Shown: piece by piece, positions 360-37,477 of the stretch
Position numbering within the stretch: the first letter of the stretch is position 1
Layout: each line of letters starts with the position of its first letter
Source of the DNA: Comamonadaceae bacterium
GTDB lineage: Bacteria > Pseudomonadota > Gammaproteobacteria > Burkholderiales > Burkholderiaceae_C
Direction: 5' to 3'
Assembly (NCBI GenBank): GCA_027486255.1
Contig: JAIXPL010000014.1
Coordinates: forward strand, 1 to 42,947
Length of the DNA stretch: 42,947 nt
Notes under the pieces: model-generated
The model's input: the letters and a program-made list of their open reading frames with translations, nothing else
Told to the model about the DNA's origin: nothing
The model's database searches: none
Translations under genes and position numbers: made by a program

Positions 360-1217
360 TCAGGCCAGCGGCACCCGCACCATGGCCTGCGGCGCGTGGC
401 CGTGGCACAGCGGCCCGTGGCCGTGGCCGGTCTGCACCGGGGCGCCCGCGCGGATGGCGCCCAGGATGTAGCTGCGCGCCTGCTGCACCGCCTCGCGCAG
501 CGGCCAGCCCTGCGCCAGAAAGGCCGCAATGGCCGAGGACAGGGTGCAACCCGTGCCATGCACATTGCGGCTGTGAATGCGCTCGGAGCGCAGGTGCAGC
601 CAGGGCTCGCCCGGCTCGGCCAGCACGTCCATCACCACCTCGCCCGGCAGGTGCCCGCCCTTGAGCAGCACGGCCCGCGCGCCTTGCGCCAGCAGGTCGG
701 TGGCGGCCGGCTCCAGGCTGTCCACGTCGGCCAGGGGTCGGCCCAGCAGCAGCGCCGCTTCGTCGAGGTTGGGCGTGATCACACTGGCGCGCGGGAACAG
801 CTCCTCGCGCAGCACGCGCACGCTGGCCTCCTCGATCAAGCGGTCACCGCTGGTGGCCACCATCACCGGGTCCAGCACCACGTTCTTCAAGCCGTAATGG
901 TCGATGGCCCAGGCCACCACGCGCACGATCTCGGGCGCATGCAGCATGCCGATCTTCACGGCGTCGACACCGATGTCGTCCAGCACGGCCTGTAGCTGGG
1001 CCTTGAGGAACTCGGGCGGCACCGCATGGATGCCGCTCACACCCCGGGTGTTCTGCGCGGTGAGTGCGGTCAGCGCGGTCATGCCATAGCAGCCGAGCGC
1101 GCTGAAGGTCTTGAGGTCGGCCTGGATGCCAGCACCACCACCGCTGTCGGAGCCGGCAATTGACAGGACACGGGCATAGCGGTGCGTGGCGCGCGGAAGG
1201 AGGTCGTGCGAGTTCAT
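360..1217 (-). CDS. thiD: Hydroxymethylpyrimidine/phosphomethylpyrimidine kinase
   Basis: ThiD phosphorylates HMP and then HMP-P to give HMP-PP, the pyrimidine half of thiamine. The product is 285 residues, normal for the family. The N-terminal SIAGSDSGGGAGIQADLKTF is the ribokinase-fold substrate site, and NVHGTGCTLSSAIAAFLAQG near residue 240 is the C-terminal anion-hole and catalytic-base motif. A longer frame runs upstream to 1316, but the added residues are unlike the family and cover noncoding DNA. ATG at 1217 sits exactly six bases after a GATAAT hexamer, with no Shine-Dalgarno, so the message may be leaderless. The gene is divergent from the riboswitch-controlled thiOSGE operon, so it shares the pathway but not the riboswitch. 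It is a single-domain ThiD with no fused ThiE. Confidence 0.95.
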   Translation of the reverse strand: MNSHDLLPRATHRYARVLSIAGSDSGGGAGIQADLKTFSALGCYGMTALTALTAQNTRGVSGIHAVPPEFLKAQLQAVLDDIGVDAVKIGMLHAPEIVRVVAWAIDHYGLKNVVLDPVMVATSGDRLIEEASVRVLREELFPRASVITPNLDEAALLLGRPLADVDSLEPAATDLLAQGARAVLLKGGHLPGEVVMDVLAEPGEPWLHLRSERIHSRNVHGTGCTLSSAIAAFLAQGWPLREAVQQARSYILGAIRAGAPVQTGHGHGPLCHGHAPQAMVRVPLA

Positions 1218-1223
1218 GGCCAA

Positions 1224-1229
1224 ATTATC
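1224..1229 (-). promoter_or_regulatory. -10 hexamer of thiD, leaderless arrangement
   Basis: On the minus strand GATAAT is followed by six bases (TTGGCC) and then the thiD ATG. A standard -10 hexamer covers -12 to -7, so the A of ATG would be the +1 base. No Shine-Dalgarno is present and no good -35 was seen. The promoter call is inference from spacing, supported by the same arrangement at other genes in the window. Confidence 0.6.
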
Positions 1230-1296
1230 GGGGGGCCCTGGCCATGCCCCGCAGCAGCCGGGCCTCGGTGGAGATGTGCTGTAATTCAAACCGGAT

Positions 1297-1376
1297 GAAA
1301 CAGGGGTGTCCGGCACGCGGCCGGGCTGAGATCAGACCCTCGACCCGATCCAGATCATGCTGGCGTGGGAAGTTTC
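1297..1376 (+). ncRNA. TPP riboswitch (THI element) upstream of thiOSGE
   Basis: The leader of the thiO operon holds the conserved parts of the TPP aptamer in order. The GAAAC (1297-1301) and GTTTC (1372-1376) arms can form the closing P1 helix. GGGGTG starts at 1303. The pyrimidine-sensing core CTGAGA is at 1326-1331, followed by the ACCC segment. The GATCCAGATC and TGCTGGCG segments form the pyrophosphate-sensing arm, and GGGAAG ends the element. It should bind thiamine pyrophosphate and lower expression of thiO-thiS-thiG-thiE. About 60 bases separate it from the thiO ATG. They hold GC-rich complementary segments and a TTTT at about 1412, but I could not decide between an attenuator and a translational switch. 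Confidence 0.9.
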
Positions 1377-1435
1377 TGCAAGCGCCCGGCGTCACCGCCC
1401 ACCGGCCGTCTGTTTTGTCCCCACGACAACACCCG

Positions 1436-2554
1436 ATGGAACCCGTGATCGCTTCTGCCACCCCCCAACACATGCTGATCCTTGGCGCTGGCCTCATGGG
1501 CCGGCTGCTGGCGCTGGCCTTGGCCCGGCAGGGGCACCGTGTCGAGGTGCACGAGGCCGGACCGGCCGACGCCTCTGGGGCCGCTGCGCGGGCGGCGGCC
1601 GCCATGCTGGCGCCGCTGGCCGAATCGGCCGTGACCGAACTGAACGTGGTGCGCATGGGGCAGCACAGCCTGCCCCGCTGGGCGCAGCTCATCGGCAGCC
1701 TGGCGCAGCCCGTCTTTTTTCAGCATAAGGGCACGCTCATCGTCTGGCACCGTCAGGACGCCCCCGAGGCCGAGCGCCTGCACCAGCACCTGGCGCGCAC
1801 GGCCAGGCTCATGCCCGAGCTGCCCGCCGCCCAGCCGCTCGATGCGGCCCGGCTGGCGCACATGGAGCCCGCGCTGGCCGGGCGCTTCAACCAGGGCCTG
1901 TTCCTGCCGGGCGAAGGCCAGCTCGACAACCGCCAGCTGCTCGAGGCACTGCGCCATGAACTCGAGCGCGCCGGCGTGGAGCTTCACTGGCACAGCGCGC
2001 GCAGCCCCGAAGCCTGGCAACCGGGGCGGCCCGGACAGCCCGACTGGCTGCTCGACTGCCGGGGCCTGGGCGCGCAGCCCGACTGGCGGCAGGTGCGCGG
2101 TGTGCGCGGCGAGGTCGTGCGCCTGCACGCACCCGAAGTGACCCTGGAGCGCCCCACCCGGCTGGTGCATCCGCGCTACCCGCTGTACATCGCGCCCAAG
2201 GAAAACCATGTCTTCGTGATCGGCGCCACCGAGATCGAGTCCGAGGACCGCTCGCCCGCCAGCGTGCGCTCGGCCCTAGAGCTGCTGAGCGCGGCCTACT
2301 CGGTGCACAGCGGCTTTGCCGAGGCGCGCCTCTTGGAAATTTCCACGCAGTTGCGCCCCACCCTGCCCGACAACCTGCCGGCCGTGCGTTGGCTGGGCGA
2401 GCGGCGCCTACAGGTCAATGGTTTGTACCGCCACGGTTTCCTGATCGCCCCAGCCCTGCTGGATGTGGTGCTGGAACTGCTCGAGGCCGGCGACAGCCCC
2501 CTGGCCCGCCACTTGGGCCTGCACATCGAACAGGGGGCGGCCGTGGCCGCTTGA
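1436..2554 (+). CDS. thiO: Glycine oxidase ThiO (FAD-dependent)
   Basis: ThiO oxidises glycine to the imine that ThiG uses to build the thiazole of thiamine. The product is 372 residues. The N-terminal MLILGAGLMGRLLALALARQ is a Rossmann FAD-binding motif, GxGxxG type. The AAARAAAAMLAP segment resembles the DAO-family region after the first strand, and the C-terminal VNGLYRHGFLIAPAL matches the G-Y-R-H-G substrate/FAD loop of glycine and D-amino-acid oxidases. The start was set at ATG 1436, downstream of the riboswitch; the frame stays open upstream through the aptamer, which is not coding. ATG 1472, just before the FAD motif, is a possible alternative. It is the first gene of thiO-thiS-thiG-thiE, with thiS starting 7 bases after its stop. 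Confidence 0.9.
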   Translation: MEPVIASATPQHMLILGAGLMGRLLALALARQGHRVEVHEAGPADASGAAARAAAAMLAPLAESAVTELNVVRMGQHSLPRWAQLIGSLAQPVFFQHKGTLIVWHRQDAPEAERLHQHLARTARLMPELPAAQPLDAARLAHMEPALAGRFNQGLFLPGEGQLDNRQLLEALRHELERAGVELHWHSARSPEAWQPGRPGQPDWLLDCRGLGAQPDWRQVRGVRGEVVRLHAPEVTLERPTRLVHPRYPLYIAPKENHVFVIGATEIESEDRSPASVRSALELLSAAYSVHSGFAEARLLEISTQLRPTLPDNLPAVRWLGERRLQVNGLYRHGFLIAPALLDVVLELLEAGDSPLARHLGLHIEQGAAVAA

Positions 2555-2561
2555 GCAGGGC

Positions 2562-2759: not shown

Positions 2760-2774
2760 ACGGATGCACACACC

Positions 2775-3572: not shown

Positions 3573-3577
3573 ACGCG

Positions 3578-4501
3578 ATGCAGCCCATCCCCACCGATCT
3601 TGACCAGGCTGCCGCCGCCATCGTGCGCCTGCACGGCGAACTGGCCCTGCCGGCCAGCAGGCCGCAAACCGACCGCACAGGCCAGCCCGTGTTCCAGGCC
3701 GCGCAGCTGGCCTGCCTGCAGCTGGGCTTCGTGGCCGCGGATGCGCACTGCGTAGCCCGTGCCTGGGCACACCAAGCCGAGCGCCTGGGCTGCTTCGACC
3801 CTGCCCAATGGCCCAGCGATCCGCGCGACTTCGGCCTGGCGCCCTGGCCGCGAGCCCAGGCCTTCGCCGAGTGCCCGAAGGACCTGGGGCTCTACGCGGT
3901 GCTGCCCGATGCAGCCTGGGTGGGCCGGCTGGCGCGGGCGGGCGTGCCCACGCTGCAGTTGCGCTTCAAGTCGGAAGACGCCCTGGCCGTGGAGACCGAA
4001 GTACAGGCCGCCGTGGAGGCCGTTCGCGGCACCGGAGCACGGCTGTTCATCAACGACCACTGGCAGGCTGCCCTGCGCGCCGGTGCCTATGGCGTGCATC
4101 TGGGCCAGGAAGACCTGGAGGTCCTGTCTGCTGCCGAGCTTGCCACGCTGCTCGAATCCGGCGTGCGCCTGGGCCTGAGCACCCACGGCTATGCCGAGAT
4201 GCTGCGGGCCGACGCATTCAGCCCCAGTTACCTGGCCCTGGGCGCCGTATTCCCCACCACCCTCAAGCGCATGGCCACTGCACCCCAGGGGCCCGGCCGG
4301 CTCAAGCGCTATGCGCAGCTGATGGCGCGCTACCCACTGGTGGCCATTGGCGGCATCGATGTCGAACGCCTGCCCGAGGTGCTGGCCAGCGGCGTAGGGT
4401 CGGTGGCCGTGGTGCGCGCCCTGGTGCAGGCTGAAGATCCCGAGCGGACCGCGGCCGACTGGATGGCGCGCATGGCCGGACGGCAGGCTTTGCCAAGCTA
4501 A
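3578..4501 (+). CDS. thiE: Thiamine phosphate synthase with N-terminal extension
   Basis: ThiE joins HMP-PP and thiazole phosphate to make thiamine phosphate. The catalytic TIM barrel occupies about residues 105-300. LYAVLPDAAW begins the barrel, and LQLRFK corresponds to the usual (L/V)QLR(x)K strand. LFINDHW matches the LxINDxxx motif, YGVHLGQEDL is the H-L-G-Q-x-D Mg2+/pyrophosphate motif, and VAIGGI is the C-terminal phosphate loop. The protein is 307 residues, whereas stand-alone ThiE is usually about 210. The first ~100 residues are not part of the barrel, show no motif I recognise and do not look like ThiD. The pyrophosphate-site residues appear intact. It is the last gene of the operon and is followed by a terminator. 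Confidence 0.9.
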   Translation: MQPIPTDLDQAAAAIVRLHGELALPASRPQTDRTGQPVFQAAQLACLQLGFVAADAHCVARAWAHQAERLGCFDPAQWPSDPRDFGLAPWPRAQAFAECPKDLGLYAVLPDAAWVGRLARAGVPTLQLRFKSEDALAVETEVQAAVEAVRGTGARLFINDHWQAALRAGAYGVHLGQEDLEVLSAAELATLLESGVRLGLSTHGYAEMLRADAFSPSYLALGAVFPTTLKRMATAPQGPGRLKRYAQLMARYPLVAIGGIDVERLPEVLASGVGSVAVVRALVQAEDPERTAADWMARMAGRQALPS

Positions 4502-4526
4502 AGCCTCAGCCCAGACGTAAAAAAAA

Positions 4527-4547: not shown

Positions 4548-4562
4548 CAGGAGAAGGAAGGA

Positions 4563-5002: not shown

Positions 5003-6202
5003 TCAGGTCGGCGGCTGCGCCGTGACCCAGCCATCGGCCAGCCACTGGGTCATCAGGTCACGGGCATCCGGGCTGGCGCGGTCCATGTCACGGGCCGTGA
5101 GGCGTCGCTCATTGGCCAGGCGGCGCATCAGCCGGGCATCTGCTCCCCGGGCCTGGTAACTCTCGCCGTTGATGAACACGTGGTCCGCGTCATAGAGCAT
5201 GCGGGTGCAGTCATGCAGCCGAAGCCCCTGCCCTGGCGGCCAGTCCGCGCCCACGTCCTGGGCCTCGAACCAGACCGTGGGTTTGGGCTCGGTCAGGTGC
5301 TCCCCCAGCACGCAGGCCAGGCGCCTAGGGTCTTTCAGGGCCTGGGCCAAGGCCTGGCGGGCAAAGGCCTCGAGGGCGGTGGGCACCAGGGCTGGCGTGT
5401 CGGTGGCGGGCTGCGCCGGGTCGCGGTACAGGCTAGGCGGCAGGCCCTCGGTCTCGTCGGCCACCAGTTCAGCCAGACCTTGCAGCAGGCCGCTGGCCAG
5501 TTCCGACCGGCTGGGGGCCTTGAAGCCGATGGAATAGGTCATGCACGGGTCTTTTGAGTGGCCCTCAGGCTGCTCGACCGCCACCCCGTCGTGCGCATAG
5601 CGCGGCGGCAGGTAGAGCATGTCCCCGGCGTGCAGCACGAACTCTTGCTCAGGTTGGAAGTTCTGCAGGATCTTCAGCGGCACACCGGCCTGCAGCGTCA
5701 GGTCGGTCTGGGCGCTGATCTTCCAGCGCCGGCTGCCGCTGGCCTGGAACAGGAACACGTCGTAGCTGTCGAAATGCGGCCCGACGCCGCCGCCTGGGCT
5801 GGCCAGAGAGATCATCAGGTCGTCCAGACGGGCATCGGGCAAGAAACGGAACTGCTGCAAGAGCTCATGCGCGGGACCGTGGTGCAGGTCCACACCTTGC
5901 ACCAACAAGGTCCAGCCAGGCTGCTTGAGCGGGGGCAGCGCGCGGCGGGCAAAAGGGCCCGATTGCAGGGTCCAGCCGGCCTCTGCCCGCCGGGCTCGGG
6001 CCGGCCGGTGGGCTTGTTGCGTGATCAGGCGCGACTCCACCTCCTCGCGCCCGGCCAGGGCAAACAGCTGCACCGGTGTGAGCAGAGGCACAAAGCCCGG
6101 GATCGCCTGGCGCACCAAGAGGGGCTTTTTCTGCCAATGGCGACGCATGAATTGCCGGGGCGAAAGGCCCCCCAGCAGGGCCAGGGCGAGTTGGGTATCC
6201 AT
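5003..6202 (-). CDS. roxA: JmjC/cupin ribosomal protein uL16 arginine hydroxylase (RoxA/YcfD family)
   Basis: The family consists of Fe(II)/2-oxoglutarate oxygenases that hydroxylate an arginine of ribosomal protein uL16. The product is 399 residues. FMRRHWQKKPLLVRQAIPG at the N-terminus is the entry motif of the family. The JmjC core carries the iron ligands in VGPHFDSYDVFLFQ (H-x-D) and in the later RYAHDGVAVE (distal His), with the LxxGDMLYLPPRY strand between. The C-terminal ~150 residues would be the dimerisation and winged-helix part. It is divergent from slyD with 14 bp between the two ATG codons. The start ATG 6202 lies six bases after a CACAAT hexamer with no Shine-Dalgarno. E. coli ycfD lies in a different context, so the name rests on the motifs. 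Confidence 0.88.
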   Translation of the reverse strand: MDTQLALALLGGLSPRQFMRRHWQKKPLLVRQAIPGFVPLLTPVQLFALAGREEVESRLITQQAHRPARARRAEAGWTLQSGPFARRALPPLKQPGWTLLVQGVDLHHGPAHELLQQFRFLPDARLDDLMISLASPGGGVGPHFDSYDVFLFQASGSRRWKISAQTDLTLQAGVPLKILQNFQPEQEFVLHAGDMLYLPPRYAHDGVAVEQPEGHSKDPCMTYSIGFKAPSRSELASGLLQGLAELVADETEGLPPSLYRDPAQPATDTPALVPTALEAFARQALAQALKDPRRLACVLGEHLTEPKPTVWFEAQDVGADWPPGQGLRLHDCTRMLYDADHVFINGESYQARGADARLMRRLANERRLTARDMDRASPDARDLMTQWLADGWVTAQPPT

Positions 6203-6204: not shown

Positions 6205-6214
6205 GACAATTGTG
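6205..6214. promoter_or_regulatory. Overlapping divergent -10 elements of slyD and roxA
   Basis: The 14-bp intergenic region holds the palindrome ACAATTGT (6206-6213). Read on the plus strand, GACAAT (6205-6210) ends six bases before the slyD ATG (6217). Read on the minus strand, CACAAT (6214-6209) ends six bases before the roxA ATG (6202). Both spacings fit a -10 element with the start codon at +1. No convincing -35 was found in either direction. Confidence 0.55.
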
Positions 6215-6216: not shown

Positions 6217-6744
6217 ATGAAAATCACCGAACCATGCGTGATCGGGCTGACCTGGGTCATGAAGGACACCCTGGGTGAAGTGCTCGATGAACTGGATGAG
6301 CCCATCGAGTTCCTGGTGGGTGGCCAAGACCTGCTGGCCAGCATCGAAAAGGCCCTGCTGAACCACGAGGCCGGCGCCAAACTGGACCTGCACCTGGAGC
6401 CGGAAGAGGCTTTTGGTGACTACGACGAAAACCGCGTGTTCCTGGAGCCGCGCACCTTGTTCCCGGCCGAACTTGAGGAAGGCATGATCTACGATGGCCG
6501 GAGTCTGCCGGCCGGCGCCAGCAGCGAGGCGCCGCCCGAGCTGATGTACACCGTCACCGACATCTACCCCGAGCATGTGGTGCTCGATGGCAACCACCCG
6601 CTGGCGGGCATCGCCATTCGCCTGCACCTGCGTGTGAGCTCGGTGCGCGAGGCCACGTTGGAGGAAGTGGGCAGTGGTACCCTGGGCACGGGCTTTTTCA
6701 AGCTCGATGCCTCCTCTGGCAGCAGCGGCCAGACACTGCACTGA
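6217..6744 (+). CDS. slyD: FKBP-type peptidyl-prolyl cis-trans isomerase, SlyD-like
   Basis: The product is 175 residues. The FKBP fold is split by an insert-in-flap chaperone domain, as in SlyD. The N-terminal strand is followed by EFLVGGQDLLASIEKALLNHEAGAK, then LEPEEAFGDYDENRVFLEPRTLF, which is the typical link into the flap domain. The FKBP domain closes with VLDGNHPLAGIAIRLHLRVSSVREAT (the V-D-x-N-H-P-L-A-G motif of the SlyD/FkpB group). Unlike E. coli SlyD there is no long His/Cys-rich metal-binding tail; the C-terminus is Ser/Gly-rich. The expected role is cytoplasmic proline isomerisation and folding assistance. FkpB-like is an alternative subfamily call. A bidirectional terminator follows. 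Confidence 0.88.
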   Translation: MKITEPCVIGLTWVMKDTLGEVLDELDEPIEFLVGGQDLLASIEKALLNHEAGAKLDLHLEPEEAFGDYDENRVFLEPRTLFPAELEEGMIYDGRSLPAGASSEAPPELMYTVTDIYPEHVVLDGNHPLAGIAIRLHLRVSSVREATLEEVGSGTLGTGFFKLDASSGSSGQTLH

Positions 6745-7269: not shown

Positions 7270-10297
<3,028 letters not shown>

Positions 10298-15297: not shown

Positions 15298-15303
15298 GAT
15301 AAT
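15298..15303 (+). promoter_or_regulatory. -10 hexamer of the DUF455 gene, leaderless arrangement
   Basis: GATAAT is followed by six bases (CGGCCC) and then ATG 15310. There is no Shine-Dalgarno. The spacing places the +1 base on the A of ATG. Confidence 0.6.
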
Positions 15304-18475: not shown

Positions 18476-18481
18476 ACCATA
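18476..18481 (-). promoter_or_regulatory. Possible -10 hexamer of xerD
   Basis: TATGGT on the minus strand is six bases before the xerD ATG. It matches four of six consensus positions and no Shine-Dalgarno is visible. It is included only because of the exact spacing shared with stronger cases. Confidence 0.3.
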
Positions 18482-19673: not shown

Positions 19674-20585
19674 GTGGTGAGCTACCTGCAACTGCTGCTG
19701 CCCGACTTCTCCCTGATTCTGTGCGGCTACCTGATCTGCCGCTACACCGCGCTCGATCGCTCGGTCTGGGAACCGGTCGAAAGACTGGTCTATTTTTTCC
19801 TCTTCCCGGTCCTGCTCTTTCACTCCATCGTCAAGAGCCCGCTGGACCTGCTGGCCGCCTCCAACCTCATCGTGGGCGGGCTGGCGGTGGCGGCGGCGGG
19901 CATTGGCCTGTCGTATGCCCTGCCCTGGCTGCCCTGGGTGGGTCGCCGCATCGACGTGCGCGACCATGCGGCGGCGGCGCAGATCGGCTTTCGCTTCAAT
20001 TCCTTCATCGGCCTGGCCATGGCCGAACGCCTGGCCGGCGCGCAGGGCCTGCTGCTGATCGCGGTGCTCATCGGCGTGTGCGTGCCCATCTTCAACATCG
20101 GCGCGGTCTGGCCCATGGCGCGGCACGCGCAGCGCCACTTCGGTCGGGAGTTGCTGCGCAACCCGCTGATCATCGCCACGGCCTCGGGGCTGCTGGCCAA
20201 CCTCCTGGGCTTTCGGCTGCCCACCTGGCTCGAACCCAGCGTGGGCCGGCTGGGCGCGAGCTCCCTGGTGCTGGGCCTGATGGCCGCCGGCGCGGGCATG
20301 CGCCTGGGCACCTTGGCCCATGCCAAGACCCTGGCCGTGAGCTTGCTGACCATCAAACACTTCCTGATGCCCCTGGTCGCCTTTGGTGTGGGGCGGCTGC
20401 TGAACCTGGCGCCTGTACAGGCCACGGTGCTGCTGGCTTTTTCCGCCCTGCCCACGGCCTCCAGCGCCTACGTGCTGGCCGCGCGCATGGGCTACAACGG
20501 CCCCATGGTGGCAGGCCTGGTGACACTCTCCACCCTGGCCGGCTTGCTCAGCTTGCCCTTTGCCATGGGCCTGGCCGGACGCTGA
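19674..20585 (+). CDS. AEC family transporter (auxin efflux carrier-like permease)
   Basis: The product is 303 residues with about ten membrane helices in two five-helix repeats, as in the AEC family. Features include the N-terminal LLPDFSLILCGYLICRYTAL, the first-repeat end QIGFRFNSFIGLAMAERLAG, and the loop RELLRNPLIIATASGLLANLLG, which is diagnostic (N-P-x-I-I-A). The second repeat ends VLLAFSALPTASSAYVLAARMG. The substrate is unknown; family members export or import malate, malonate and other carboxylates. It starts with GTG (19674 or the next GTG at 19677) without a clear ribosome-binding site. It is divergent from the carboxylate-binding Bug protein, so a shared substrate type is possible. 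Its TGA abuts the queG stop. Confidence 0.9.
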   Translation: MVSYLQLLLPDFSLILCGYLICRYTALDRSVWEPVERLVYFFLFPVLLFHSIVKSPLDLLAASNLIVGGLAVAAAGIGLSYALPWLPWVGRRIDVRDHAAAAQIGFRFNSFIGLAMAERLAGAQGLLLIAVLIGVCVPIFNIGAVWPMARHAQRHFGRELLRNPLIIATASGLLANLLGFRLPTWLEPSVGRLGASSLVLGLMAAGAGMRLGTLAHAKTLAVSLLTIKHFLMPLVAFGVGRLLNLAPVQATVLLAFSALPTASSAYVLAARMGYNGPMVAGLVTLSTLAGLLSLPFAMGLAGR

Positions 20586-21659: not shown

Positions 21660-22169
21660 CCTGGCATTGTAGGAAGCACGGTCTGGCAAGACGAGCGCGG
21701 CACCGAGGCTTTTGCCCAGCGGCTGGCGCAGGCCCTGCGTGCGCTGCAGCCCGCCGGCGATGCGCTGATTGAGCTGCGCGGCAACCTGGGCGCGGGCAAA
21801 ACCACCTTCGCACGCCACCTGCTGCATGCCTTGGGCGTGGTCGGCCGCATCAAAAGCCCCACTTATGCCGTGGTGGAGACCTACCAAGTGCGGCTGGAGG
21901 GCGTTGCACTGGCCATTGCCCACTTCGACTTCTACAGATTCAACGACCCCGACGAATGGGAGGAAGCGGGCTTTCGCGATGTATTCGCCGCGCCCGGACT
22001 CCAGCTCGTGGAGTGGCCCGACAAGGCCCAGGGCCGGCTGCCCACGCCCGACCTGGTGATTGAGATCCACAGCCAGGCCCATGACGGCGAGCAGGCCGAG
22101 GGGCCTCGCCAAGTGCATCTGCGCAGCTTCAGCCCCCGGGGTGACGCCCTGGTGGCCGCCTGCTCATGA
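21642..22169 (+). CDS. tsaE: tRNA N6-adenosine threonylcarbamoyltransferase complex ATPase TsaE
   Basis: TsaE is the ATPase that supports TsaBD in making t6A37 on ANN-decoding tRNAs. The product is 175 residues. Motifs: the Walker A GNLGAGKTTFARHLL, the switch-like SPTYAVVETY, HFDFYRF, and LVEWPDKA near the end. The C-terminus is about 20 residues longer than the E. coli protein. Start ATG 21642 gives a normal N-terminus and lies inside the first codons of queG on the opposite strand, so the two divergent genes overlap by 18 bases. TGA 22167-22169 overlaps the ATG of amiC (ATGA), indicating translational coupling. The tsaE-amiC pair is widely conserved. Confidence 0.94.
   Translation: MAALDHPGIVGSTVWQDERGTEAFAQRLAQALRALQPAGDALIELRGNLGAGKTTFARHLLHALGVVGRIKSPTYAVVETYQVRLEGVALAIAHFDFYRFNDPDEWEEAGFRDVFAAPGLQLVEWPDKAQGRLPTPDLVIEIHSQAHDGEQAEGPRQVHLRSFSPRGDALVAACS
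21666..21671 (-). promoter_or_regulatory. -10 hexamer of queG inside tsaE coding sequence
   Basis: On the minus strand TACAAT is followed by GCCAGG and then the queG ATG (21659). The promoter therefore lies within the first codons of tsaE on the other strand. The six-base spacing fits a leaderless transcript. Confidence 0.55.
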
Positions 22170-24153: not shown

Positions 24154-24159
24154 TACAAT
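24154..24159 (+). promoter_or_regulatory. -10 hexamer of mutL, leaderless arrangement
   Basis: TACAAT is followed by seven bases and then the GTG start of mutL (24167). There is no Shine-Dalgarno. The seven-base spacer is within the normal range for a start at or next to the first codon base. Confidence 0.55.
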
Positions 24160-24166: not shown

Positions 24167-26032
24167 GTGACCTCACCGCCCCGCCGCGCCATCCGCGAAC
24201 TCCCCGATGAACTCATCAGCCAGATCGCCGCTGGCGAAGTGGTTGAGCGCCCCGCCTCCGTGGTGCGAGAGCTGGTGGACAACGCCCTGGACGCCGGCGC
24301 CACCGAGGTGGTGGTGCGCCTGTCGGCCGGCGGCGTGCGCCTGATCCGCATCGAGGACGATGGCATGGGCATCCGCCGCGAGGAGCTGCCGATCGCGCTC
24401 AAACGCCACGCCACCAGCAAGATCGCCTCACTCGATGAGCTGCAGTCCGTGCAGACCATGGGTTTTCGGGGCGAGGCGCTGGCCGCCATCAACTCGATTG
24501 CCGACATGAGCGTCCTCTCGCGCACGGCCGATGCCGAGCACGGCTGGCAGCTTGACGGCCGCACCGGCGAGCTCAAACCAGGCGCGCGCGCCGTGGGCAC
24601 CACGGTGGAGGTGCGTGAGCTGTTTTACGCCACGCCCGCGCGCCGCAAATTCCTCAAAACCGATGCCACCGAGCTGGCGCACTGCATCGAGGCTGTGCGG
24701 CGCCATGCGCTGGCGCGGCCCGATGTGGGCTTTTCCATCTGGCACGAGGGCAAGCTCATGGAGCAGTGGCGCGCCGCCCGCAGCGACCCGGCCGGCGCAC
24801 TGGCACAGCGCCTGGCCGACGTCATGGGCGAGGCCTTTGCCGAGCAGTCGGTGGTGGTGGACCACCACAGCAGCGGGCCTGGCCCGCAGATCCGAGTTTG
24901 GGGCCGCGCAGGCCTGCCGGACCTCGCCCGCGCGCGCGGCGACCTGCAGTTTGCCTACGTCAACGGCCGCTACGTGCGCGACAAGGTGCTCACGCACGCC
25001 GCCCGCTCGGCCTACGAAGACGTGCTGCACGGCCAGCGCCAGCCGCTCTATGCCCTGTACGTGGAGATGGATGCCACCCGCGTGGATGTGAATGTGCACC
25101 CGACCAAGATCGAGGTGCGCTTTCGTGACAGCCGCGAGGTGCACCAAGCGGTGCGCCACGCCCTGGAAAACGCGCTGGCTGCGCCCCGCGCCGGTCTGGG
25201 CCATGGCATTCCCTCCACGCCCATTGAAACCGCCGCGCCACCCGTCTGGCCCAGCGACGCCAGTCCCGCCCGTCCCTGGCAGCAGGCTGGCATGAGCCTG
25301 TCACTCCGGCAGGACCGTGGCATCAACGACTTCGCCGCCATGTGGCCCAGCACTGCACCAGCAGCGGCTGCGTTGATGGCCGCCGAGCCCTCAGCAGCCC
25401 TGGCGAGCTGGTCTGCCCAGGCCCGGCCCTCCGAGCTGCCGTCTGGCGACTGGCCGCTGGGCCGCGCCATCGCGCAGCTGCAAGGCGTCTACATCCTGGC
25501 AGAAAACAGCCAGGGGCTGGTCGTCGTGGACATGCATGCCGCGCACGAGCGCATCGTCTATGAACGGCTCAAGACCCAGCTCGACGAAGCCGCCCTGGCC
25601 AGCCAGCCCCTGTTGATTCCGGCCAGCTTCGCGGCCACGCCGCAGGAAATTGCCACCGCCCAGGCGGCCGCAGACACCCTGCAGGCCCTGGGCCTGGAAG
25701 TGGCCCCGCTCTCACCCAAGACCCTGGCCGTGCGGGCCGTACCCAGCACCCTGGCCCAGGGCGAACCGGTGGAGCTGGCGCGCAGCGTGCTGGCCGAGCT
25801 GGCGCAGCACGATGACCACCAGGTGCTGACCCGGGCACGCAACGAACTGCTGGCCACCATGGCCTGCCACGGCGCCGTGCGTGCCAACCGCAAACTCACG
25901 CTCGAAGAAATGAATGCGCTGCTGCGGCAGATGGAGGCCACCGAGCGCTCGGACCAGTGCAACCATGGCCGACCGACCTGGCGGCAGCTCAGCCTCAAGG
26001 AACTCGACGCGCTCTTTCTGCGCGGGCGCTGA
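24167..26032 (+). CDS. mutL: DNA mismatch repair protein MutL (endonuclease type)
   Basis: MutL links MutS mismatch recognition to strand removal. The product is 621 residues. The N-terminal GHKL ATPase (about 1-340) has LPDELISQIAAGEVVERPASVV, the DDGMGI Mg/ATP motif, KRHATSKI and TMGFRGEALAAI. A Pro/Ala-rich linker (about 345-430) leads to the C-terminal dimerisation domain. There DMHAAHERIVYE fits the D-x-H-A-x2-E-x4-E endonuclease metal motif with Met at the variable position, and CNHGRPT near the end is the matching zinc motif. This MutL should therefore nick DNA itself, as expected where MutH is absent. The start is GTG 24167; longer in-frame sequence overlaps dedA. DUF3429 ends 8 bases downstream on the other strand. 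Confidence 0.96.
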   Translation: MTSPPRRAIRELPDELISQIAAGEVVERPASVVRELVDNALDAGATEVVVRLSAGGVRLIRIEDDGMGIRREELPIALKRHATSKIASLDELQSVQTMGFRGEALAAINSIADMSVLSRTADAEHGWQLDGRTGELKPGARAVGTTVEVRELFYATPARRKFLKTDATELAHCIEAVRRHALARPDVGFSIWHEGKLMEQWRAARSDPAGALAQRLADVMGEAFAEQSVVVDHHSSGPGPQIRVWGRAGLPDLARARGDLQFAYVNGRYVRDKVLTHAARSAYEDVLHGQRQPLYALYVEMDATRVDVNVHPTKIEVRFRDSREVHQAVRHALENALAAPRAGLGHGIPSTPIETAAPPVWPSDASPARPWQQAGMSLSLRQDRGINDFAAMWPSTAPAAAALMAAEPSAALASWSAQARPSELPSGDWPLGRAIAQLQGVYILAENSQGLVVVDMHAAHERIVYERLKTQLDEAALASQPLLIPASFAATPQEIATAQAAADTLQALGLEVAPLSPKTLAVRAVPSTLAQGEPVELARSVLAELAQHDDHQVLTRARNELLATMACHGAVRANRKLTLEEMNALLRQMEATERSDQCNHGRPTWRQLSLKELDALFLRGR

Positions 26033-26040: not shown

Positions 26041-26514
26041 TCAGGCCAGCCAGTAGGCCAGCGCGCCCAGAGCCACGCTGACCGAGGCCACCGCCGTCAG
26101 CAGGGCCCGCAGGGGCAGCCAGGCCGCGAGACCCAGCGCGCGGTAGCTCGCGCGGTCTACCGCATAGCAGGCCAGCAGGCTGAGCACCAAGAGCGCATGC
26201 CCCCAGGGGCTGTCGAGCAGCACGGCCAGCCAGCCCAGCAGGCTGGGCAGCACCCCCCACAGCAGTCGGGGCGCCTGAAGCTCCGCCTGACGCATGGCCA
26301 GACCCCAGTGAATGCCACCCAGAAAGCTCACGATCACCGCCCCGTAAGTCAGCAGGGCCGAGGCCGCCAGCATGCGCCAGCCCGGTGGCGTGAACCATTG
26401 CAGCGCGGCACCGGCCACGAAGGGAATAAGGCCCGCCAGACCCAGGCCCCAGGCCAGAGGCGAGGGGGCATGCGAAGGGGTAGGCAGTGCAGCGGAAGAA
26501 GGCAAAGCGGGCAT
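26041..26514 (-). CDS. DUF3429 membrane protein
   Basis: The product is 157 residues with about five predicted membrane helices and a short N-terminal tail. The pattern LAWGLGLAGLIPFVAGA, then ALLTYGAVIVSFLGGIHWGLAM, then WGVLPSLLGWLAVLL fits the DUF3429 family, in which the F-L-G-G-x-x-W-G motif is the hallmark. No function is established for the family. The ATG 26514 lies six bases after TACACT with no Shine-Dalgarno. The gene is convergent with mutL with only 8 bases between them, and divergent from the Bcr/CflA exporter gene 103 bases away. Confidence 0.85.
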   Translation of the reverse strand: MPALPSSAALPTPSHAPSPLAWGLGLAGLIPFVAGAALQWFTPPGWRMLAASALLTYGAVIVSFLGGIHWGLAMRQAELQAPRLLWGVLPSLLGWLAVLLDSPWGHALLVLSLLACYAVDRASYRALGLAAWLPLRALLTAVASVSVALGALAYWLA

Positions 26515-26520: not shown

Positions 26521-26526
26521 AGTGTA
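26521..26526 (-). promoter_or_regulatory. -10 hexamer of the DUF3429 gene, leaderless arrangement
   Basis: On the minus strand TACACT is followed by GCCGCC and then ATG 26514. The spacer has no Shine-Dalgarno, and six bases place +1 on the A of ATG. Confidence 0.5.
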
Positions 26527-26617: not shown

Positions 26618-27877
26618 TTGCCTTCCAAGTCCACGCCGATCCCCGAGCACACCAGCCTGCCGGTCCACCCCACCAGCCGCAGCTCGGCCCGCCTGCTGAT
26701 CGTCCTTTTGTCGCTGCTCATGGGACTGCAGCCTGTGAGCACCGACCTGTATCTGCCCGCGCTGCCCGCCATGAGCGAGGGCTTTGGCGTGCACATCTCG
26801 CAGGTGCAGTTCACCCTGAGCGCCCTGCTGCTGTCCTTTGGCTGCTCGCAGCTGTTTTGGGGGCCGCTGTCGGACCGTTTCGGCCGGCGCCCGGTGCTGC
26901 TGTGGGGCATGAGCGCCTATGTGCTGGCAGCCATTGGCTCGAGCCTGGCCCCCAGCCTGGGCTGGCTGGTGGTCTGGCGCATGCTGCAGGGTGCGGCCCT
27001 GGGCTCGGCGGTGATGACCGCGCGCGCCGTGGTGCGCGACCGCTACGGCCCCACCGAGGGCGCGCGCGTGATGTCCACGGCCCTGACCGGCCTGGGCCTG
27101 ATCGCCGGCCTGAGTGCCCCCATCGGCGGCCTGCTCACGCAGTTCTTCGGCTGGCGTGCGTCACTGGCCGCCCTGGCCATTTTTGGGGCCGTGGTGCTGG
27201 CCCTGATCGCCTGGCGCTTTGAAGAGACGCTGACGGCCAAGCGCCTCAATGCCCTGCACCCGGGCGAGATGCTGCGCACCTGGCTGCGCATTGGCCGCCA
27301 CCCGCGCTTTCTGGTGTTCTCTGCCGTGGCCTCCAGCGGCAACGCGGGCCTGTTCACCTACCTGGTGACCTCCTCCTTCATCCTCATCCGCCTCCATGGT
27401 CTGAGCCAGGTGAGCTACGGCTTTTGCATGGCCTCCATGAGCCTGTGCTACGTGGCCGGCACCATGGTCTGCCGCCGGCTGCTGCTGCGCGTGGGCCTGC
27501 AGCGCACCATGGACATAGGCGCTGGCATCAGCCTGAGCTCTGGCCTCTTGCTGGCGGGGCTCTTTGCCTTGGACGTGCACACGGTCTGGGCCGTGGTGCT
27601 GCCCATGAACCTGTTCTTGGTGGGCCACGGCATCAACCAGCCCTGCAGCCAGAACGGCGCCATCGCGCCCTTCCCCGAGGCGGCCGGCACCGCGGCTGCG
27701 CTCAATGGCTTTTGCATGATGATGACCGCCTTCCTGGTGGGCCTCTGGCTTGGAGAGCACATGGACGGCACCGAGCTGCCCCTGGTGCAGGGCCTGCTGT
27801 TCTGGAGCGCCATCATCGCCCTGCTCTCCTGGGTACTGGTGCGCCGCTTCGGCAGCCGCACGAGCACTGCCGTGTAA
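26618..27877 (+). CDS. Bcr/CflA family multidrug efflux MFS transporter
   Basis: The product is about 419 residues with 12 membrane helices. Bcr/CflA features: STDLYLPALPAM after helix 1 (D-x-Y-L-P-A-x-P), GPLSDRFGRRPVLLWG as the MFS motif A between helices 2 and 3, RMLQGAALGSAVMTARAVVRD (R-x-x-Q-G), and the motif C-like GLGLIAGLSAPIGGLL in helix 5. It exports drugs or small metabolites such as sulfonamide-type compounds or cysteine, driven by protons; the actual substrate is unknown. The start is uncertain: TTG 26618 keeps the N-terminal tail and helix 1, and no ATG exists before residue 35, inside helix 1. It is followed 9 bases later by miaA, so both may share a transcript. Confidence 0.88.
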   Translation: MPSKSTPIPEHTSLPVHPTSRSSARLLIVLLSLLMGLQPVSTDLYLPALPAMSEGFGVHISQVQFTLSALLLSFGCSQLFWGPLSDRFGRRPVLLWGMSAYVLAAIGSSLAPSLGWLVVWRMLQGAALGSAVMTARAVVRDRYGPTEGARVMSTALTGLGLIAGLSAPIGGLLTQFFGWRASLAALAIFGAVVLALIAWRFEETLTAKRLNALHPGEMLRTWLRIGRHPRFLVFSAVASSGNAGLFTYLVTSSFILIRLHGLSQVSYGFCMASMSLCYVAGTMVCRRLLLRVGLQRTMDIGAGISLSSGLLLAGLFALDVHTVWAVVLPMNLFLVGHGINQPCSQNGAIAPFPEAAGTAAALNGFCMMMTAFLVGLWLGEHMDGTELPLVQGLLFWSAIIALLSWVLVRRFGSRTSTAV

Positions 27878-27886: not shown

Positions 27887-28845
27887 ATGGCCGAGCACCT
27901 GCACCTGATCGCGCTGGCCGGACCCACGGCCTCCGGCAAGACCGCCGCCGCACTGGCCGTGGCTGAGCGCTGGCCGGTGGAAATCATCAGCGTGGACTCG
28001 GCCCTGGTCTACCGGGGCATGGACATCGGCACCGCCAAACCCAGCGCAGCCGAGCGCGCCGCCGTGCCGCACCACCTGATCGACATCCGCGACCCGCTCA
28101 ATGCCTACAGCGCCGCCGATTTCTGCCGCGATGCCCGCAGCTTGGTGGGCGAGATCCGGGCGCGGGGCCGCCTGCCCCTGCTGGTGGGCGGCACCATGCT
28201 GTACTTCAAGGCCCTGTTCGAGGGGCTGGACGACATGCCCACCGCCGATGCAGAAGTGCGCGCAGCCATCGCTGAAGAAGCGGCCGCCCTGGGCTGGCCG
28301 GCCCTGCATGCACAGCTGGCCGAGCTTGACCCGGCCACGGCCGCGCGCCTGGAGCCGCAGGATTCGCAGCGCATCGCCCGGGCACTGGAGGTCTGGCGGG
28401 TCTCGGGACAGCCGCTGTCGGCCTTTCAGACCCGCCAAGGGCGTGCGCCGGCTCCACAAGAACATGTCCTCATCGCGCTGGAACCCCGCGAGCGCGCCTG
28501 GCTGCACCAGCGCATCGCCCAGCGCTTTGAACAGATGCTGCACGAGGGCCTGCTGGACGAGGTGCGCATGCTGCGCCGGCGCGGCGACCTGCACGCCGAC
28601 CTGCCGGCCATGCGCTGCGTGGGCTACCGGCAGGCCTGGGCGCTGCTGCACGAGGCCGGCGATGCCGAGCTGTCCCCGGCACAGACCGAACGCTTGCGCG
28701 AGACCGGCATCGCCGCCACCCGCCAACTGGCCAAGCGCCAGCTGACCTGGCTGCGCAGCATGCCCGGGCGCCACAGCATCGCCGCCGACGCGGACCAGGC
28801 CCTGGCGCAGCTGATGGCCTGCGTGGCCTCGCACTGGGGCACGCC

Positions 28846-32518: not shown

Positions 32519-32524
32519 GACAAT
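32519..32524 (+). promoter_or_regulatory. -10 hexamer of the AttH-like gene, leaderless arrangement
   Basis: GACAAT is followed by GGGGCC and then ATG 32531. The spacing supports ATG 32531 over the in-frame ATG 32474, which has no promoter or ribosome-binding signal of its own. Confidence 0.5.
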
Positions 32525-32530
32525 GGGGCC

Positions 32531-33637
32531 ATGTCCTCGCCCGTGCCCATGCTCCGCGCCCTGCCGTCTCGCCGCCTCTGCCTGCAGTGGCTGGGCCTGG
32601 CCACGGCCGGCGGCCTGCCCGCCGCCCAGGCCCTGCCGCCGGCGCAGCTGAGCTTTCCCCGCGACTTCGGCGCACACCCCGACCGGCGCACCGAGTGGTG
32701 GTACATCACGGGCCTGGCGCGCACGGTCGCAGGCCGCGAATTCGGCTTTCAGCTCACCTTCTTTCGCACCCGGGTGGAAGCCGCGCAGGGCATGCAATCG
32801 CGCTTTGCCGCTCGGCAACTGGTCTTCGCCCACGCCGCCCTGACTGACCTGGCGGGCGGCCGCCTGCTGCACGACCAGCGCATCGCCCGCGAAGGCTTTG
32901 GCTTGGCCCAGGCCTCCAGCCAAGACACCAACCTGCGCCTGGACGGCTGGACCCTCCAACGCCAAGGCCCCGCCGAACGCAGCACCTATGTGGCCGAGCT
33001 GCAGGCGCAGGACTTCGGCATGGCGTTGTCGTTCACCAGCACGCAGCCGGTGCTGCTGCAGGGACAACAAGGCCTCTCGCGCAAGGGCCCGGAGCCCCGC
33101 CAGGCCAGCTACTACTACAGCCAGCCGCAGCTTAGCGCCCAGGGCAGCTTGAAGCTGCGCGGCCAAAGCCTGGCCGTGCAGGGGACCGCCTGGCTGGACC
33201 ATGAATGGAGTGACGACCTCCTGCACCCCGATGCGCAGGGCTGGGACTGGGTGGGCATGAACCTGGACGACGGCAGTGCCCTCACCGCCTTTCGCCTGCG
33301 GCGCCCCGACGGCAGCAGCCTCTGGGACGGTGGCTCCTGGCGGACACCGGGCCAGGCGGCGCGCAACTTCGCTGCCGGCAGCGTGCGCTTTGAACCCCAA
33401 CGCTGGTGGACCAGCCCGCTCACCCAGGCGCGCTATCCCGTGGCCTGGCAGCTGGACACACCGGCCGGCCGCTTCATGGTCCAGGCACGACTGGACGACC
33501 AGGAGCTCGACAGCCGCGCCTCCACCGGCGCCGTTTACTGGGAAGGCTTGAGTGAGCTGCGCGATGCACAGGGCCGGCGTGTGGGCCAGGGTTACCTGGA
33601 AATGACGGGCTACGCCGCTCCGCTGCGCCTGTCCTGA
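32531..33637 (+). CDS. CrtC/AttH lipocalin-like secreted protein
   Basis: The product is 368 residues from ATG 32531; ATG 32474 would add 19. The N-terminus LPSRRLCLQWLGLATAGGLPAAQA looks like a Tat-type signal peptide (S-R-R-x-C-L-Q), cleaving after AQA. The mature protein begins with FPRDFGAHPDRRTEWWYITG; the E-W-W-Y-x-T-G motif is the hallmark of the CrtC/AttH (carotenoid 1,2-hydratase-like lipocalin) family. AWLDHEWSDD and GWDWVGMNLDDG mark the second beta-barrel. Carotenoid hydratase activity is unlikely, because no carotenoid genes are present. The location behind an FtsX-type ABC transporter fits the AttH component, a periplasmic barrel that may bind a lipidic substrate. Confidence 0.88.
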   Translation: MSSPVPMLRALPSRRLCLQWLGLATAGGLPAAQALPPAQLSFPRDFGAHPDRRTEWWYITGLARTVAGREFGFQLTFFRTRVEAAQGMQSRFAARQLVFAHAALTDLAGGRLLHDQRIAREGFGLAQASSQDTNLRLDGWTLQRQGPAERSTYVAELQAQDFGMALSFTSTQPVLLQGQQGLSRKGPEPRQASYYYSQPQLSAQGSLKLRGQSLAVQGTAWLDHEWSDDLLHPDAQGWDWVGMNLDDGSALTAFRLRRPDGSSLWDGGSWRTPGQAARNFAAGSVRFEPQRWWTSPLTQARYPVAWQLDTPAGRFMVQARLDDQELDSRASTGAVYWEGLSELRDAQGRRVGQGYLEMTGYAAPLRLS

Positions 33638-33652
33638 GGCCCCGGGTTGGGT

Positions 33653-33658
33653 TCCAAT
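33653..33658 (+). promoter_or_regulatory. Possible -10 hexamer of slyX
   Basis: TCCAAT, with four of six consensus bases, ends six bases before the slyX ATG (33665), and no Shine-Dalgarno is present. It is a weak member of the leaderless set. Confidence 0.3.
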
Positions 33659-33664
33659 ACGGGC

Positions 33665-33895: not shown

Positions 33896-33900
33896 ACACC

Positions 33901-35673: not shown

Positions 35674-35761
35674 AAGCGCCCGGCTCAGCCAGAATGCCGC
35701 GGGGCAGGCAGAATCGAGCCGGCCTTGAAGGCCTCTTCATTTCAAAACTACCGGAGACGCC

Positions 35762-36787: not shown

Positions 36788-36799
36788 CCGGCATGGGGC

Positions 36800-36825
36800 G
36801 CCGCTGATCTGAACCGATCAGCGGC
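36800..36825 (+). terminator. Perfect 10-bp hairpin after the MetE-like gene
   Basis: GCCGCTGATC (36800-36809) and GATCAGCGGC (36816-36825) pair perfectly around a 6-base loop. No T-run follows, so it may be an RNA 3'-end stabiliser or a Rho-assisted terminator rather than a classical intrinsic one. It starts 13 bases after the stop codon. Confidence 0.6.
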
Positions 36826-36927
36826 CGGTGAGCCTGCACGCAGCCACCTTCATCGTGGCCTGCCAGCGCATTCTGCACACGCGCCAGCTGCGTGGGCTGT
36901 ACCCCTGAGACGATGGCGCCCCAGGGC

Positions 36928-37000
36928 GATCGCCCAGGGACTGGGCTCCTACACAGGGGCAGAAGACTAAGCCCTGATCGCCCAGGGACTGGGCTCCTAC
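36928..37000 (-). repeat. REP-like hairpins, copies 2 and 3, direct repeats
   Basis: Two identical 25-base elements lie at 36928-36952 and 36976-37000. On the minus strand each reads GTAGGAG, then a hairpin with arms CCCAG and CTGGG, then CGATC. They are 48 bases apart in the same orientation. The second supplies the TAG stop of the DUF1178 gene (36999-36997). The remaining gap, 36788-36927, holds the hairpin at 36800 and no convincing gene. A 12-base palindrome GGGCGATCGCCC overlaps the left edge of the first copy. Confidence 0.8.
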
Positions 37001-37464
37001 TGGAGAGGTTCGTTCAGCGAGGAAGGCAAAGGCAGCACGGTGATGCCCTCCTCCAGCAACTCCACGGCTTCCTTGGCCGAGGTGCGGCCACGGATGCCGC
37101 GCTCTTCGGTTTCGCCATAGTGCATCTGGCGGGCGACTTCGGCAAAGCGCTCACCCACGTCCTCGGTGCGGGCCACCGCCTCGCGCATGACCTTCATCCA
37201 GGCGGCCTGGAGCTGCGGGTCGGCCATGACGGCTGGCAGCCCCGCCTCGGCGGTGGGGGCCGGGGTCGAGGCCGTGGGGGCCACGGGTGGGGGCGACGCC
37301 CCGAGGTTCAGGCGCGGGGCACTGAGCTGTTTGTCCACCGAGGCGTCACCGCACAGGGGACAGCTCACGAGGCCGCGCTCGCGCTGACTCTGGAAGTCGT
37401 CCTCGGACGCGAACCAGCCCTCGAAGACATGCTGCTGCGTGCATTTGAGGTCCAAGACTTTCAT
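36997..37464 (-). CDS. DUF1178 family zinc-ribbon protein
   Basis: The product is 155 residues. The N-terminal MKVLDLKCTQQHVFEGWFAS and SCPLCGDASVDKQLSAPRLN form the DUF1178 zinc-ribbon-like start (C-x4-H, later C-x-x-C). A Pro/Ala/Thr linker follows, then the conserved helical region VMREAVARTEDVGERFAEVARQMHYGETEERGIRG. The function is unknown. DUF1178 genes at the end of nuo operons with a NUDIX gene are typical of Burkholderiales. The ATG 37464 lies seven bases after a GATAAT, so it may also be transcribed independently of nuo. Its last codons, including the stop, overlap a REP-like repeat, giving the C-terminal LQ-stop. Confidence 0.88.
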   Translation of the reverse strand: MKVLDLKCTQQHVFEGWFASEDDFQSQRERGLVSCPLCGDASVDKQLSAPRLNLGASPPPVAPTASTPAPTAEAGLPAVMADPQLQAAWMKVMREAVARTEDVGERFAEVARQMHYGETEERGIRGRTSAKEAVELLEEGITVLPLPSSLNEPLQ

Positions 37465-37471
37465 GGGGACG

Positions 37472-37477
37472 ATTATC
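37472..37477 (-). promoter_or_regulatory. -10 hexamer of the DUF1178 gene, near-leaderless arrangement
   Basis: On the minus strand GATAAT is followed by seven bases (CGTCCCC) and then ATG 37464. No Shine-Dalgarno is present. It would give the last gene of the nuo cluster its own short transcript. Confidence 0.5.

What the first reader, a model, noticed from the sequence alone, without database searches (positions are those of the whole stretch)
1217..37477. Recurrent leaderless-promoter signature: -10 hexamer exactly 6-7 bases before the start codon
At thiD (GATAAT-6-ATG), roxA (CACAAT-6), slyD (GACAAT-6), coaBC (TACATT-6), DUF455 (GATAAT-6), queG (TACAAT-6), DUF3429 (TACACT-6), AttH-like (GACAAT-6), mutL (TACAAT-7-GTG) and DUF1178 (GATAAT-7), a -10-like hexamer ends six or seven bases before the start codon. 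None of these spacers holds a Shine-Dalgarno. XerD and slyX are weaker members. Because the -10 element normally covers -12 to -7, +1 would fall on the start codon. The genes are unlinked and functionally diverse, and nearly all head a transcription unit. Genes with a clear Shine-Dalgarno (lipoprotein, MetE-like, cfa) lack the pattern. It suggests that a large fraction of single genes in this organism use leaderless mRNA, and it fixes several start codons.
Basis: partly seen in the sequence, partly recalled or inferred. Interest (0 to 1): 0.75.

Follow-up and report, generated by a model that had tools for sequence, protein, structure and literature searches.

The report
Leaderless genes with start-adjacent promoters
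In this bacterium a modest share of genes appear to be copied into RNA starting at the protein start codon itself, and some neighbouring genes that point away from each other seem to do so from touching or overlapping promoter boxes that many relatives share.

Summary
The ten sites are real, as written. With starts chosen without the motif, -10-like hexamers peak 6 to 8 bases before start codons in this genome and drop sharply below 6; internal ATGs and E. coli K-12 show no such peak, and it recurs in 0.77 Mb held out. Orthologues often keep hexamer and spacing: slyD 58 of 70, coaBC 25 of 29, mutL 64 of 77; AttH does not (0 of 7). Leaderless transcription is the best reading, but 'large fraction' is too strong: about 5 to 10 % of genes; this window is unusually rich. 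No -35 enrichment is detectable. Less expected are divergent leaderless pairs: roxA/slyD start 14 bp apart over overlapping -10 hexamers (ACAATTGT), and maf/yceD have back-to-back -10s; both recur in relatives. Such tight pairs were not found in the held-out part (0 of 6). Leaderless genes in beta-proteobacteria are already published; the shared-promoter pairs look like a variant. No transcript end was measured.

The parts
1224..1229 (-). -10 hexamer GATAAT of thiD; 6-nt spacer; start codon ATG at 1217
   Evidence: 16 of 28 orthologues keep a hexamer at -14..-12, 6 % at control offsets
6209..6214 (-). -10 hexamer CACAAT of roxA; start ATG at 6202; overlaps the slyD hexamer by 2 bp (6209-6210)
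   Evidence: 17 of 36 orthologues, a set that includes loci found by the pair pattern; pair pattern in 21 of 120 family genomes, own included, 16 of them at slyD
6205..6210 (+). -10 hexamer GACAAT of slyD-like gene; start ATG at 6217; with the roxA hexamer forms the palindrome ACAATTGT (6206-6213) in a 14-bp intergenic region
   Evidence: 58 of 70 junctions not chosen by the pattern (own included), 1 to 6 of 70 at shifted spacings
8530..8535 (-). -10 hexamer TACATT of coaBC; start ATG at 8523
   Evidence: 25 of 29 orthologues, consensus ctgnTACATTGC
15298..15303 (+). -10 hexamer GATAAT of DUF455 gene; start ATG at 15310
   Evidence: 18 of 26 orthologues
18476..18481 (-). weak -10-like hexamer TATGGT of xerD; start ATG at 18469
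   Evidence: 3 of 14 orthologues
21666..21671 (-). -10 hexamer TACAAT of queG; start ATG at 21659
   Evidence: 27 of 43 orthologues
   Evidence: posterior 0.57; 44 of 70 orthologues, 13 % at control offsets; DedA family
24154..24159 (+). -10 hexamer TACAAT, 7-nt spacer, of mutL; start GTG at 24167
   Evidence: 64 of 77 orthologues
26521..26526 (-). -10 hexamer TACACT of DUF3429 gene; start ATG at 26514
   Evidence: only 2 orthologues at hand
32519..32524 (+). -10-like hexamer GACAAT before CrtC/AttH-like gene; start ATG at 32531
   Evidence: not conserved, 0 of 7 orthologues
37472..37477 (-). -10 hexamer GATAAT, 7-nt spacer, of DUF1178 gene; start ATG at 37464
   Evidence: 16 of 29 orthologues

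Best explanation
The hexamers work like housekeeping-sigma -10 elements, placed so that transcription starts at, or within about 3 nt of, the start codon; the mRNAs are leaderless and are translated without a Shine-Dalgarno, probably by recognition of the 5' AUG by 70S ribosomes or with IF2 (general knowledge; also in abstracts and passages seen). Shown by computation: the hexamers, their spacing, their enrichment at that position, their conservation, their bias to divergent starts. Inferred: that RNA polymerase starts there and that the mRNA is translated leaderless. Some divergent neighbours have taken this to the limit: with no leaders to accommodate, two -10 elements sit back to back (maf/yceD) or overlap in one palindrome (roxA/slyD), so that 14 to 27 bp hold both -10 elements between the two start codons. 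There RNA polymerase would bind one way or the other, not both at once (inferred).
For: Position peak at -12 with an almost empty -11, replicated on held-out DNA, not seen at internal ATGs or in E. coli K-12; the learned motif is lost in shuffled upstream regions. Learned motif [T/G]AnAAT with positions not given in advance, 45 % at -12; it resembles TAnAAT from mapped starts in two Burkholderiales. Divergent context 35 of 74 against 96 of 467 for Shine-Dalgarno genes, p = 3e-6; co-directional under 30 bp 13 of 74 against 225 of 467; ATG 71 of 76 against 602 of 753. Orthologue conservation above control offsets in nine of the window's genes including DedA. Loci of other Burkholderiales around mutL show the same peak. 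Pairs: roxA/slyD both with the hexamer in 32 of 76 junctions, 27 of these 14 to 19 bp apart; maf/yceD both in 26 of the 26 loci where yceD was found divergent, 15 of these 25 or 26 bp apart.
Against: No -35 enrichment: at least 4 of 6 TTGACA matches at spacer 15-19 in 14 of 109 motif genes against 188 of 1304 others; at least 5 of 6 in 5 of 109 against 26 of 1304, although both published data sets report a weak -35. EM from three random seeds did not find the -10 motif (two found Shine-Dalgarno), so it rests on a seeded start. Tight leaderless pairs: 5 of 8 divergent pairs under 60 bp in the first set (two of them in this window), 0 of 6 held out. Of three control genes, cfa also exceeded its control offsets (8 of 25 against 10 %). 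thiD orthologues also match at -11..-9 in 13 of 28, by eye mostly TAATTT inside GATAATTT. AttH is not conserved. No 5' end was measured.
Confidence: 0.86

Rival explanations
1. The hexamers are true -10 elements but many transcripts keep a short leader of 1 to 9 nt, so the genes are short-leader rather than strictly leaderless.
For: Spacers of 7, 8 and 9 make up a shoulder (learned positions -13 22 %, -14 13 %, -15 8 %); 7 of 36 roxA orthologues have a hexamer at -15.
Against: The commonest spacer is 6 and very little lies below it, which fits +1 on the start codon; published work counts leaders of up to 10 nt or under 5 nt as leaderless.
Confidence: 0.2
2. The A/T-rich hexamer is a translation element (unstructured or S1-binding patch), not a promoter.
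For: No -35 enrichment; Nakagawa 2017 notes that A/T bias at -20..-10 might also be S1 sites (passage).
Against: Specific [T/G]AnAAT pattern with last T 84 %, bias to divergent starts and scarcity behind close co-directional genes, palindromic sharing between divergent genes.
Confidence: 0.06
3. The roxA/slyD palindrome ACAATTGT is an operator for a regulator and only looks like two -10 elements.
For: A.AATT.T lies within 20 nt of a candidate slyD start in 46 of 70 junctions; the mirror control T.TTAA.A within 80 nt in 0 of 70.
Against: In three family members (G034, G084, G007) the two genes have separate -10 hexamers with start codons 32 to 42 bp apart, each at 6 or 7 nt spacing; maf/yceD has non-palindromic back-to-back hexamers.
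Confidence: 0.08
4. Chance or the reader's selection from a GC-rich window.
For: The window is richer than the rest of the genome, so the impression was inflated; AttH may be such a chance site.
Against: Genome-wide peak, held-out replication and orthologue conservation.
Confidence: 0.01

Closest known systems
TA-led (leaderless) genes of Zheng et al. 2011 (PMC3160421; passages and one section read)
   Same: TANNNT about 12 bp before the start, no Shine-Dalgarno; they report 9 of 71 beta-proteobacterial genomes with 2.8 to 10.6 % leaderless genes, a range that holds the estimates here
Leaderless transcripts of Burkholderia cenocepacia J2315 (PMC4603805) and Cupriavidus metallidurans CH34 (PMC7563307); passages read
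   Same: Mapped starts at or near the start codon (72 plus 42 genes, 24 of these transcripts tRNAs; 4.67 % of primary starts); -10 TAnAAT
   Different: Measured, in other members of the order; transcriptional regulators over-represented; a weak -35 reported for their promoters as a whole
-10 region adjacent to ORFs in Deinococcus-Thermus (PMC12340547; outline and two sections read)
   Same: -10 hexamer about 6-7 bp before the ORF, conserved in homologues, working there without a -35
   Different: Nearly one third of D. radiodurans genes and a different phylum; promoter function tested there; here G is almost as common as T in the first position
Bidirectional promoters of E. coli and Salmonella (PMC10268837, PMC12825309; passages read)
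   Same: Divergent starts from symmetric or overlapping -10 elements; definition 7 to 25 bp between starts
   Different: Preferred spacing 18 bp (10 and 23 also common) while roxA/slyD would be 15; the word leaderless does not occur in either text; here both products would be proteins that begin at the starts
prpD and its divergent regulator in Mycobacterium tuberculosis (PMC3898074, passages and a figure legend seen)
   Same: Two divergent neighbours both with leaderless mRNAs
   Different: Overlapping -10 hexamers are not stated in the passage
EcoRV restriction-modification genes (PMC5333194, passages seen)
   Same: Divergent promoters with overlapping polymerase sites, only one bound at a time
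   Different: A regulated selfish system; the leaderless transcript in the passages seen is that of AhdI, not EcoRV

Membership tests
Leaderless (TA-led) genes | -10-like hexamer with first base about 12 nt before the start codon | tested here: met
Leaderless (TA-led) genes | no Shine-Dalgarno at the usual distance | tested here: met
   Shine-Dalgarno posterior at most 0.02 for the eight listed starts that the caller kept; for coaBC and queG judged by eye
Leaderless (TA-led) genes | gene heads its transcription unit | tested here: met
   9 of 10 by position; genome-wide bias, but 13 of 74 motif genes lie within 30 bp of a co-directional gene
Leaderless (TA-led) genes | mRNA 5' end on the start codon | not testable with these tools
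   no transcript data held
Classical sigma-70 promoter with -10 and -35 | -35 element 15 to 19 bp before the -10 | tested here: not met
   14 of 109 against 188 of 1304; TGn extension mildly enriched, 13 of 109 against 61 of 1304, p = 0.003. So I say 'works like a -10 element', not 'classical promoter'
Bidirectional promoter (definition in PMC10268837) | overlapping -10 elements on opposite strands, starts 7 to 25 bp apart | tested here: met
   roxA/slyD by sequence only: hexamers overlap 2 bp, predicted starts 15 bp apart; maf/yceD predicted at 26 bp or more, just outside
Bidirectional promoter (definition in PMC10268837) | divergent transcription observed from the element | not testable with these tools
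   needs transcript mapping

The most novel reading that the evidence does not exclude
In this family of Burkholderiales, leaderless expression lets divergent housekeeping genes share a minimal two-way promoter without a recognisable -35, in which 14 to 27 bp between the start codons hold both -10 elements; at roxA/slyD two formerly separate -10 elements have fused into one palindrome, and the same state arose separately at murB/yajQ in one genome.
Probability: 0.55. Interest if true: 0.62.

Novelty: new variant of a known kind. Interest (0 to 1): 0.5.

Why it matters
It gives a list of named, conserved, probably leaderless housekeeping genes in an order with culturable members, so start codons can be corrected and leaderless translation studied in ordinary genes. 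The divergent pairs would be a small natural test of how RNA polymerase chooses direction: 14 bp of DNA would decide which of two protein genes is transcribed. The apparent lack of a -35 raises the question of what else recruits polymerase there.

Tried and rejected
EM for upstream motifs from three random seeds did not recover the -10 motif; two recovered Shine-Dalgarno. The seeded motif was therefore checked on five shuffles, one pseudo-start set and three internal-ATG samples, none of which kept TAnAAT or a -12 peak. A -35 was sought twice and not found. The idea that tight divergent pairs are generally leaderless in this genome did not replicate: 5 of 8 in the first set, 0 of 6 held out; pooled 5 of 14 against 2 of 187, and 3 of 12 without this window's own pairs. 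Five of the 21 genomes with the 14-bp pattern have it elsewhere than at slyD: one is a murB/yajQ pair, a second (L158) is MurB-like by eye on one side with a doubtful ORF on the other, and three lack a convincing second gene. yajQ itself is mostly without the hexamer (2 of 30). The loci all surround mutL, so that comparison is not genome-wide. Literature on shared promoters of divergent leaderless genes: the listings (titles and starts of abstracts) showed nothing that describes it; one search lists overlapping divergent promoters on a Bacillus plasmid (PMC4207663), not read. This covers the held open-access library only.
Full report
What was claimed. All ten are present as written, and Pfam supports nine of the ten gene names; the slyD name rests on a sub-threshold NCBIfam match. 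The window is the first 42,947 bases of contig C56 in a 2.66-Mb, 85-contig draft genome. In the named collection its MutL is closest, at 67 to 71 % identity, to Polaromonas, Hydrogenophaga, Ramlibacter, Curvibacter and Variovorax, so I place it in or near the Comamonadaceae (inference).

Is it more than chance? I called genes in 1.06 Mb of the same genome with a coding-potential caller of my own whose start choice ignores upstream motifs (929 genes). Around 894 starts, TANNNT begins at -12 in 19, at -13 in 13 and at -14 in 9, with a mean of 3.5 per offset further upstream and 1 at -11. NANAAT gives 23, 12 and 7 against 1.5, with 0 at -11. At 5804 in-frame internal ATGs the -12 counts are 8 and 5 (means 3.7 and 1.6), and at 4328 out-of-frame ATGs 2 and 1. 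The near-empty position at -11 fits a transcript that must not start beyond the start codon. A mixture model seeded with Shine-Dalgarno and -10 consensus, but with free positions, puts 9.7 % of genes in a [T/G]AnAAT class with 45 % of its weight at -12. Random seeds did not find it, which I count against the model; shuffles, a pseudo-start set and internal ATGs started from the same seed lost the motif.

Held-out test. On 0.77 Mb not used before (641 starts) either hexamer starts at -12 in 19 and at -13 in 10, with a background mean of 4.6 and maximum of 10. The frozen model assigns 33 of 641 (5.1 %). With all in-frame start candidates allowed, 88 of 915 genes pass at the true spacing and 21 to 45 at shifted ones, an excess of 5 to 6 %. 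Two hundred kilobases of E. coli K-12 under the same procedure show no peak (166 starts, 0 at -12, background 4.2). So the fraction is about 5 to 10 %, not a large one. The window itself is rich, 9 of 37 (one of them, DedA, at posterior 0.57) against 100 of 1498 elsewhere (p = 8e-4).

Context. Motif genes are more often divergent from their upstream neighbour than Shine-Dalgarno genes (35 of 74 against 96 of 467), less often within 30 bp of a co-directional gene (13 of 74 against 225 of 467), and mostly start with ATG (71 of 76 against 602 of 753). These are properties expected of leaderless transcription-unit heads, though the 13 close co-directional cases are not explained.

Orthologues. For each gene I took relatives, all in-frame start candidates near the aligned start, and asked for NANAAT or TANNNT at -14..-12, with other offsets as control: slyD 36 of 36 (control 14 %), coaBC 25 of 29 (4 %), mutL 64 of 77 (4 %), DUF455 18 of 26 (9 %), queG 27 of 43 (6 %), DedA 44 of 70 (13 %), thiD 16 of 28 (6 %), DUF1178 16 of 29 (3 %), roxA 17 of 36 (6 %). 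Genes meant as controls: amidase at 22166 0 of 41 (4 %), IPP transferase at 27887 5 of 59 (5 %), cfa 8 of 25 (10 %), the last above its control. AttH 0 of 7 and xerD 3 of 14. The slyD and roxA rows include loci found by the palindrome pattern; without them slyD is 58 of 70 (own genome included), with 1 to 6 of 70 at shifted spacings. In the orthologues that have the hexamer, most genes keep their own version of it, while the 31 bases upstream carry little information (0.17 to 0.35 bits per base; 0.79 for roxA, whose upstream side is slyD); since these rows were selected for the hexamer, its own conservation there is partly by construction. By eye, mutL keeps it even in Massilia, Ralstonia and Undibacterium loci, whereas DedA is leaderless-type in Comamonadaceae-like loci and Shine-Dalgarno-type in Burkholderia-like and Oxalobacteraceae-like ones.

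No -35. Over 109 motif genes of the own genome a -35 of at least four matches at spacer 15 to 19 occurs in 14, against 188 of 1304 others, and of at least five in 5 against 26; a TGn extension is mildly enriched (13 of 109 against 61 of 1304, p = 0.003). This resembles the -10-adjacent promoters described in Deinococcus and differs from the weak -35 reported for B. cenocepacia and C. metallidurans promoters as a whole.

Divergent pairs. roxA and slyD start 14 bp apart. GACAAT (6205-6210, +) and CACAAT (6209-6214, -) overlap by two bases, and together make ACAATTGT. The pattern CATNNNANAATTNTNNNATG occurs in 21 of 120 family genomes, own included, and its reversed control in none; 16 of the 21 are slyD loci. 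Over 76 distinct junctions (own included; 30 best protein hits, 40 picked by hand over the remaining range, the rest from the pattern scan, so the 14-bp count is not a rate), slyD has the hexamer at -14..-12 in 64; the roxA start region could be placed in 61 and has it at -15..-12 in 40; both have it in 32, with gaps of 14 bp in 14 cases, 15 to 19 in 13, and 32 to 58 in 5, two of the last resting on weak hexamers. In three genomes the two hexamers are clearly separate, with starts 32 to 42 bp apart, which suggests fusion in the others (direction of change inferred).

A pair outside the window. maf and yceD, 27 bp apart in this genome, were then examined in 29 relatives: maf has the hexamer in 27, yceD was found divergent in 26 and has it in all 26, and in 15 the gap is 25 or 26 bp with AGTGTA-A-GAGAAT between the spacers; shifted controls for maf give 0 or 1 of 29. 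murB has the hexamer in 28 of 29 divergent loci, while yajQ has it in 2 of 30; one genome has both at 14 bp. Against generality: divergent pairs under 60 bp were both motif-led in 5 of 8 in the first set, two of which are this window's own, but in 0 of 6 held out.

Mechanism and likelihood. Best reading, 0.86: elements that work like sigma-70 -10 boxes place +1 at or next to the start codon. The step from sequence to transcript, and the mode of translation, are inferred. For the pairs I think mutually exclusive binding of polymerase in two directions is most likely, 0.55.

Known or new. Leaderless genes with this signature are known in bacteria, including 9 of 71 beta-proteobacterial genomes at 2.8 to 10.6 % (passages of PMC3160421), and by measurement in two Burkholderiales; a gene-finder study says 21.6 % of bacterial species are predicted to use them (passage of PMC9581028). 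Bidirectional promoters are known, and one divergent leaderless pair is shown in M. tuberculosis. I saw no description of overlapping -10 elements serving two leaderless genes in the listings. Hence new variant of a known kind, with moderate interest.

Noticed in passing
own genome, 894 starts: C stands directly before the start codon in 68 % and at -2 in 49 % of all starts, in Shine-Dalgarno genes too (340 of 486 at -1). A C signal immediately upstream of starts in some Proteobacteria is reported in PMC5397173 (passages).
   Followed up: partly
window 8523 and 21659: A motif-blind caller starts coaBC at TTG 8538 and queG at ATG 21827; the conserved -10 hexamers point to 8523 and 21659.
   Followed up: yes
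window 19674-20585 and 26618-27877: Orthologues of these transporter-like genes often have the hexamer (15 of 22 and 11 of 25) although the starts called in the window do not; their start codons may be misplaced.
   Followed up: no
DedA orthologues in L028-L107: By eye, DedA looks leaderless in Comamonadaceae-like loci but has a Shine-Dalgarno and often a TTG start in Burkholderia-like loci, a possible switch of initiation mode.
   Followed up: partly
murB orthologues in L433-L462: murB has the hexamer in 28 of 29 divergent loci of the family.
   Followed up: partly
own genome, learned -10: G (34 %) is almost as frequent as T (43 %) in the first -10 position.
   Followed up: no
L023 6631/6677: hrcA and an NAD kinase gene form another divergent pair, 45 bp apart, with both starts assigned to the -10 class; conservation not examined.
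   Followed up: no
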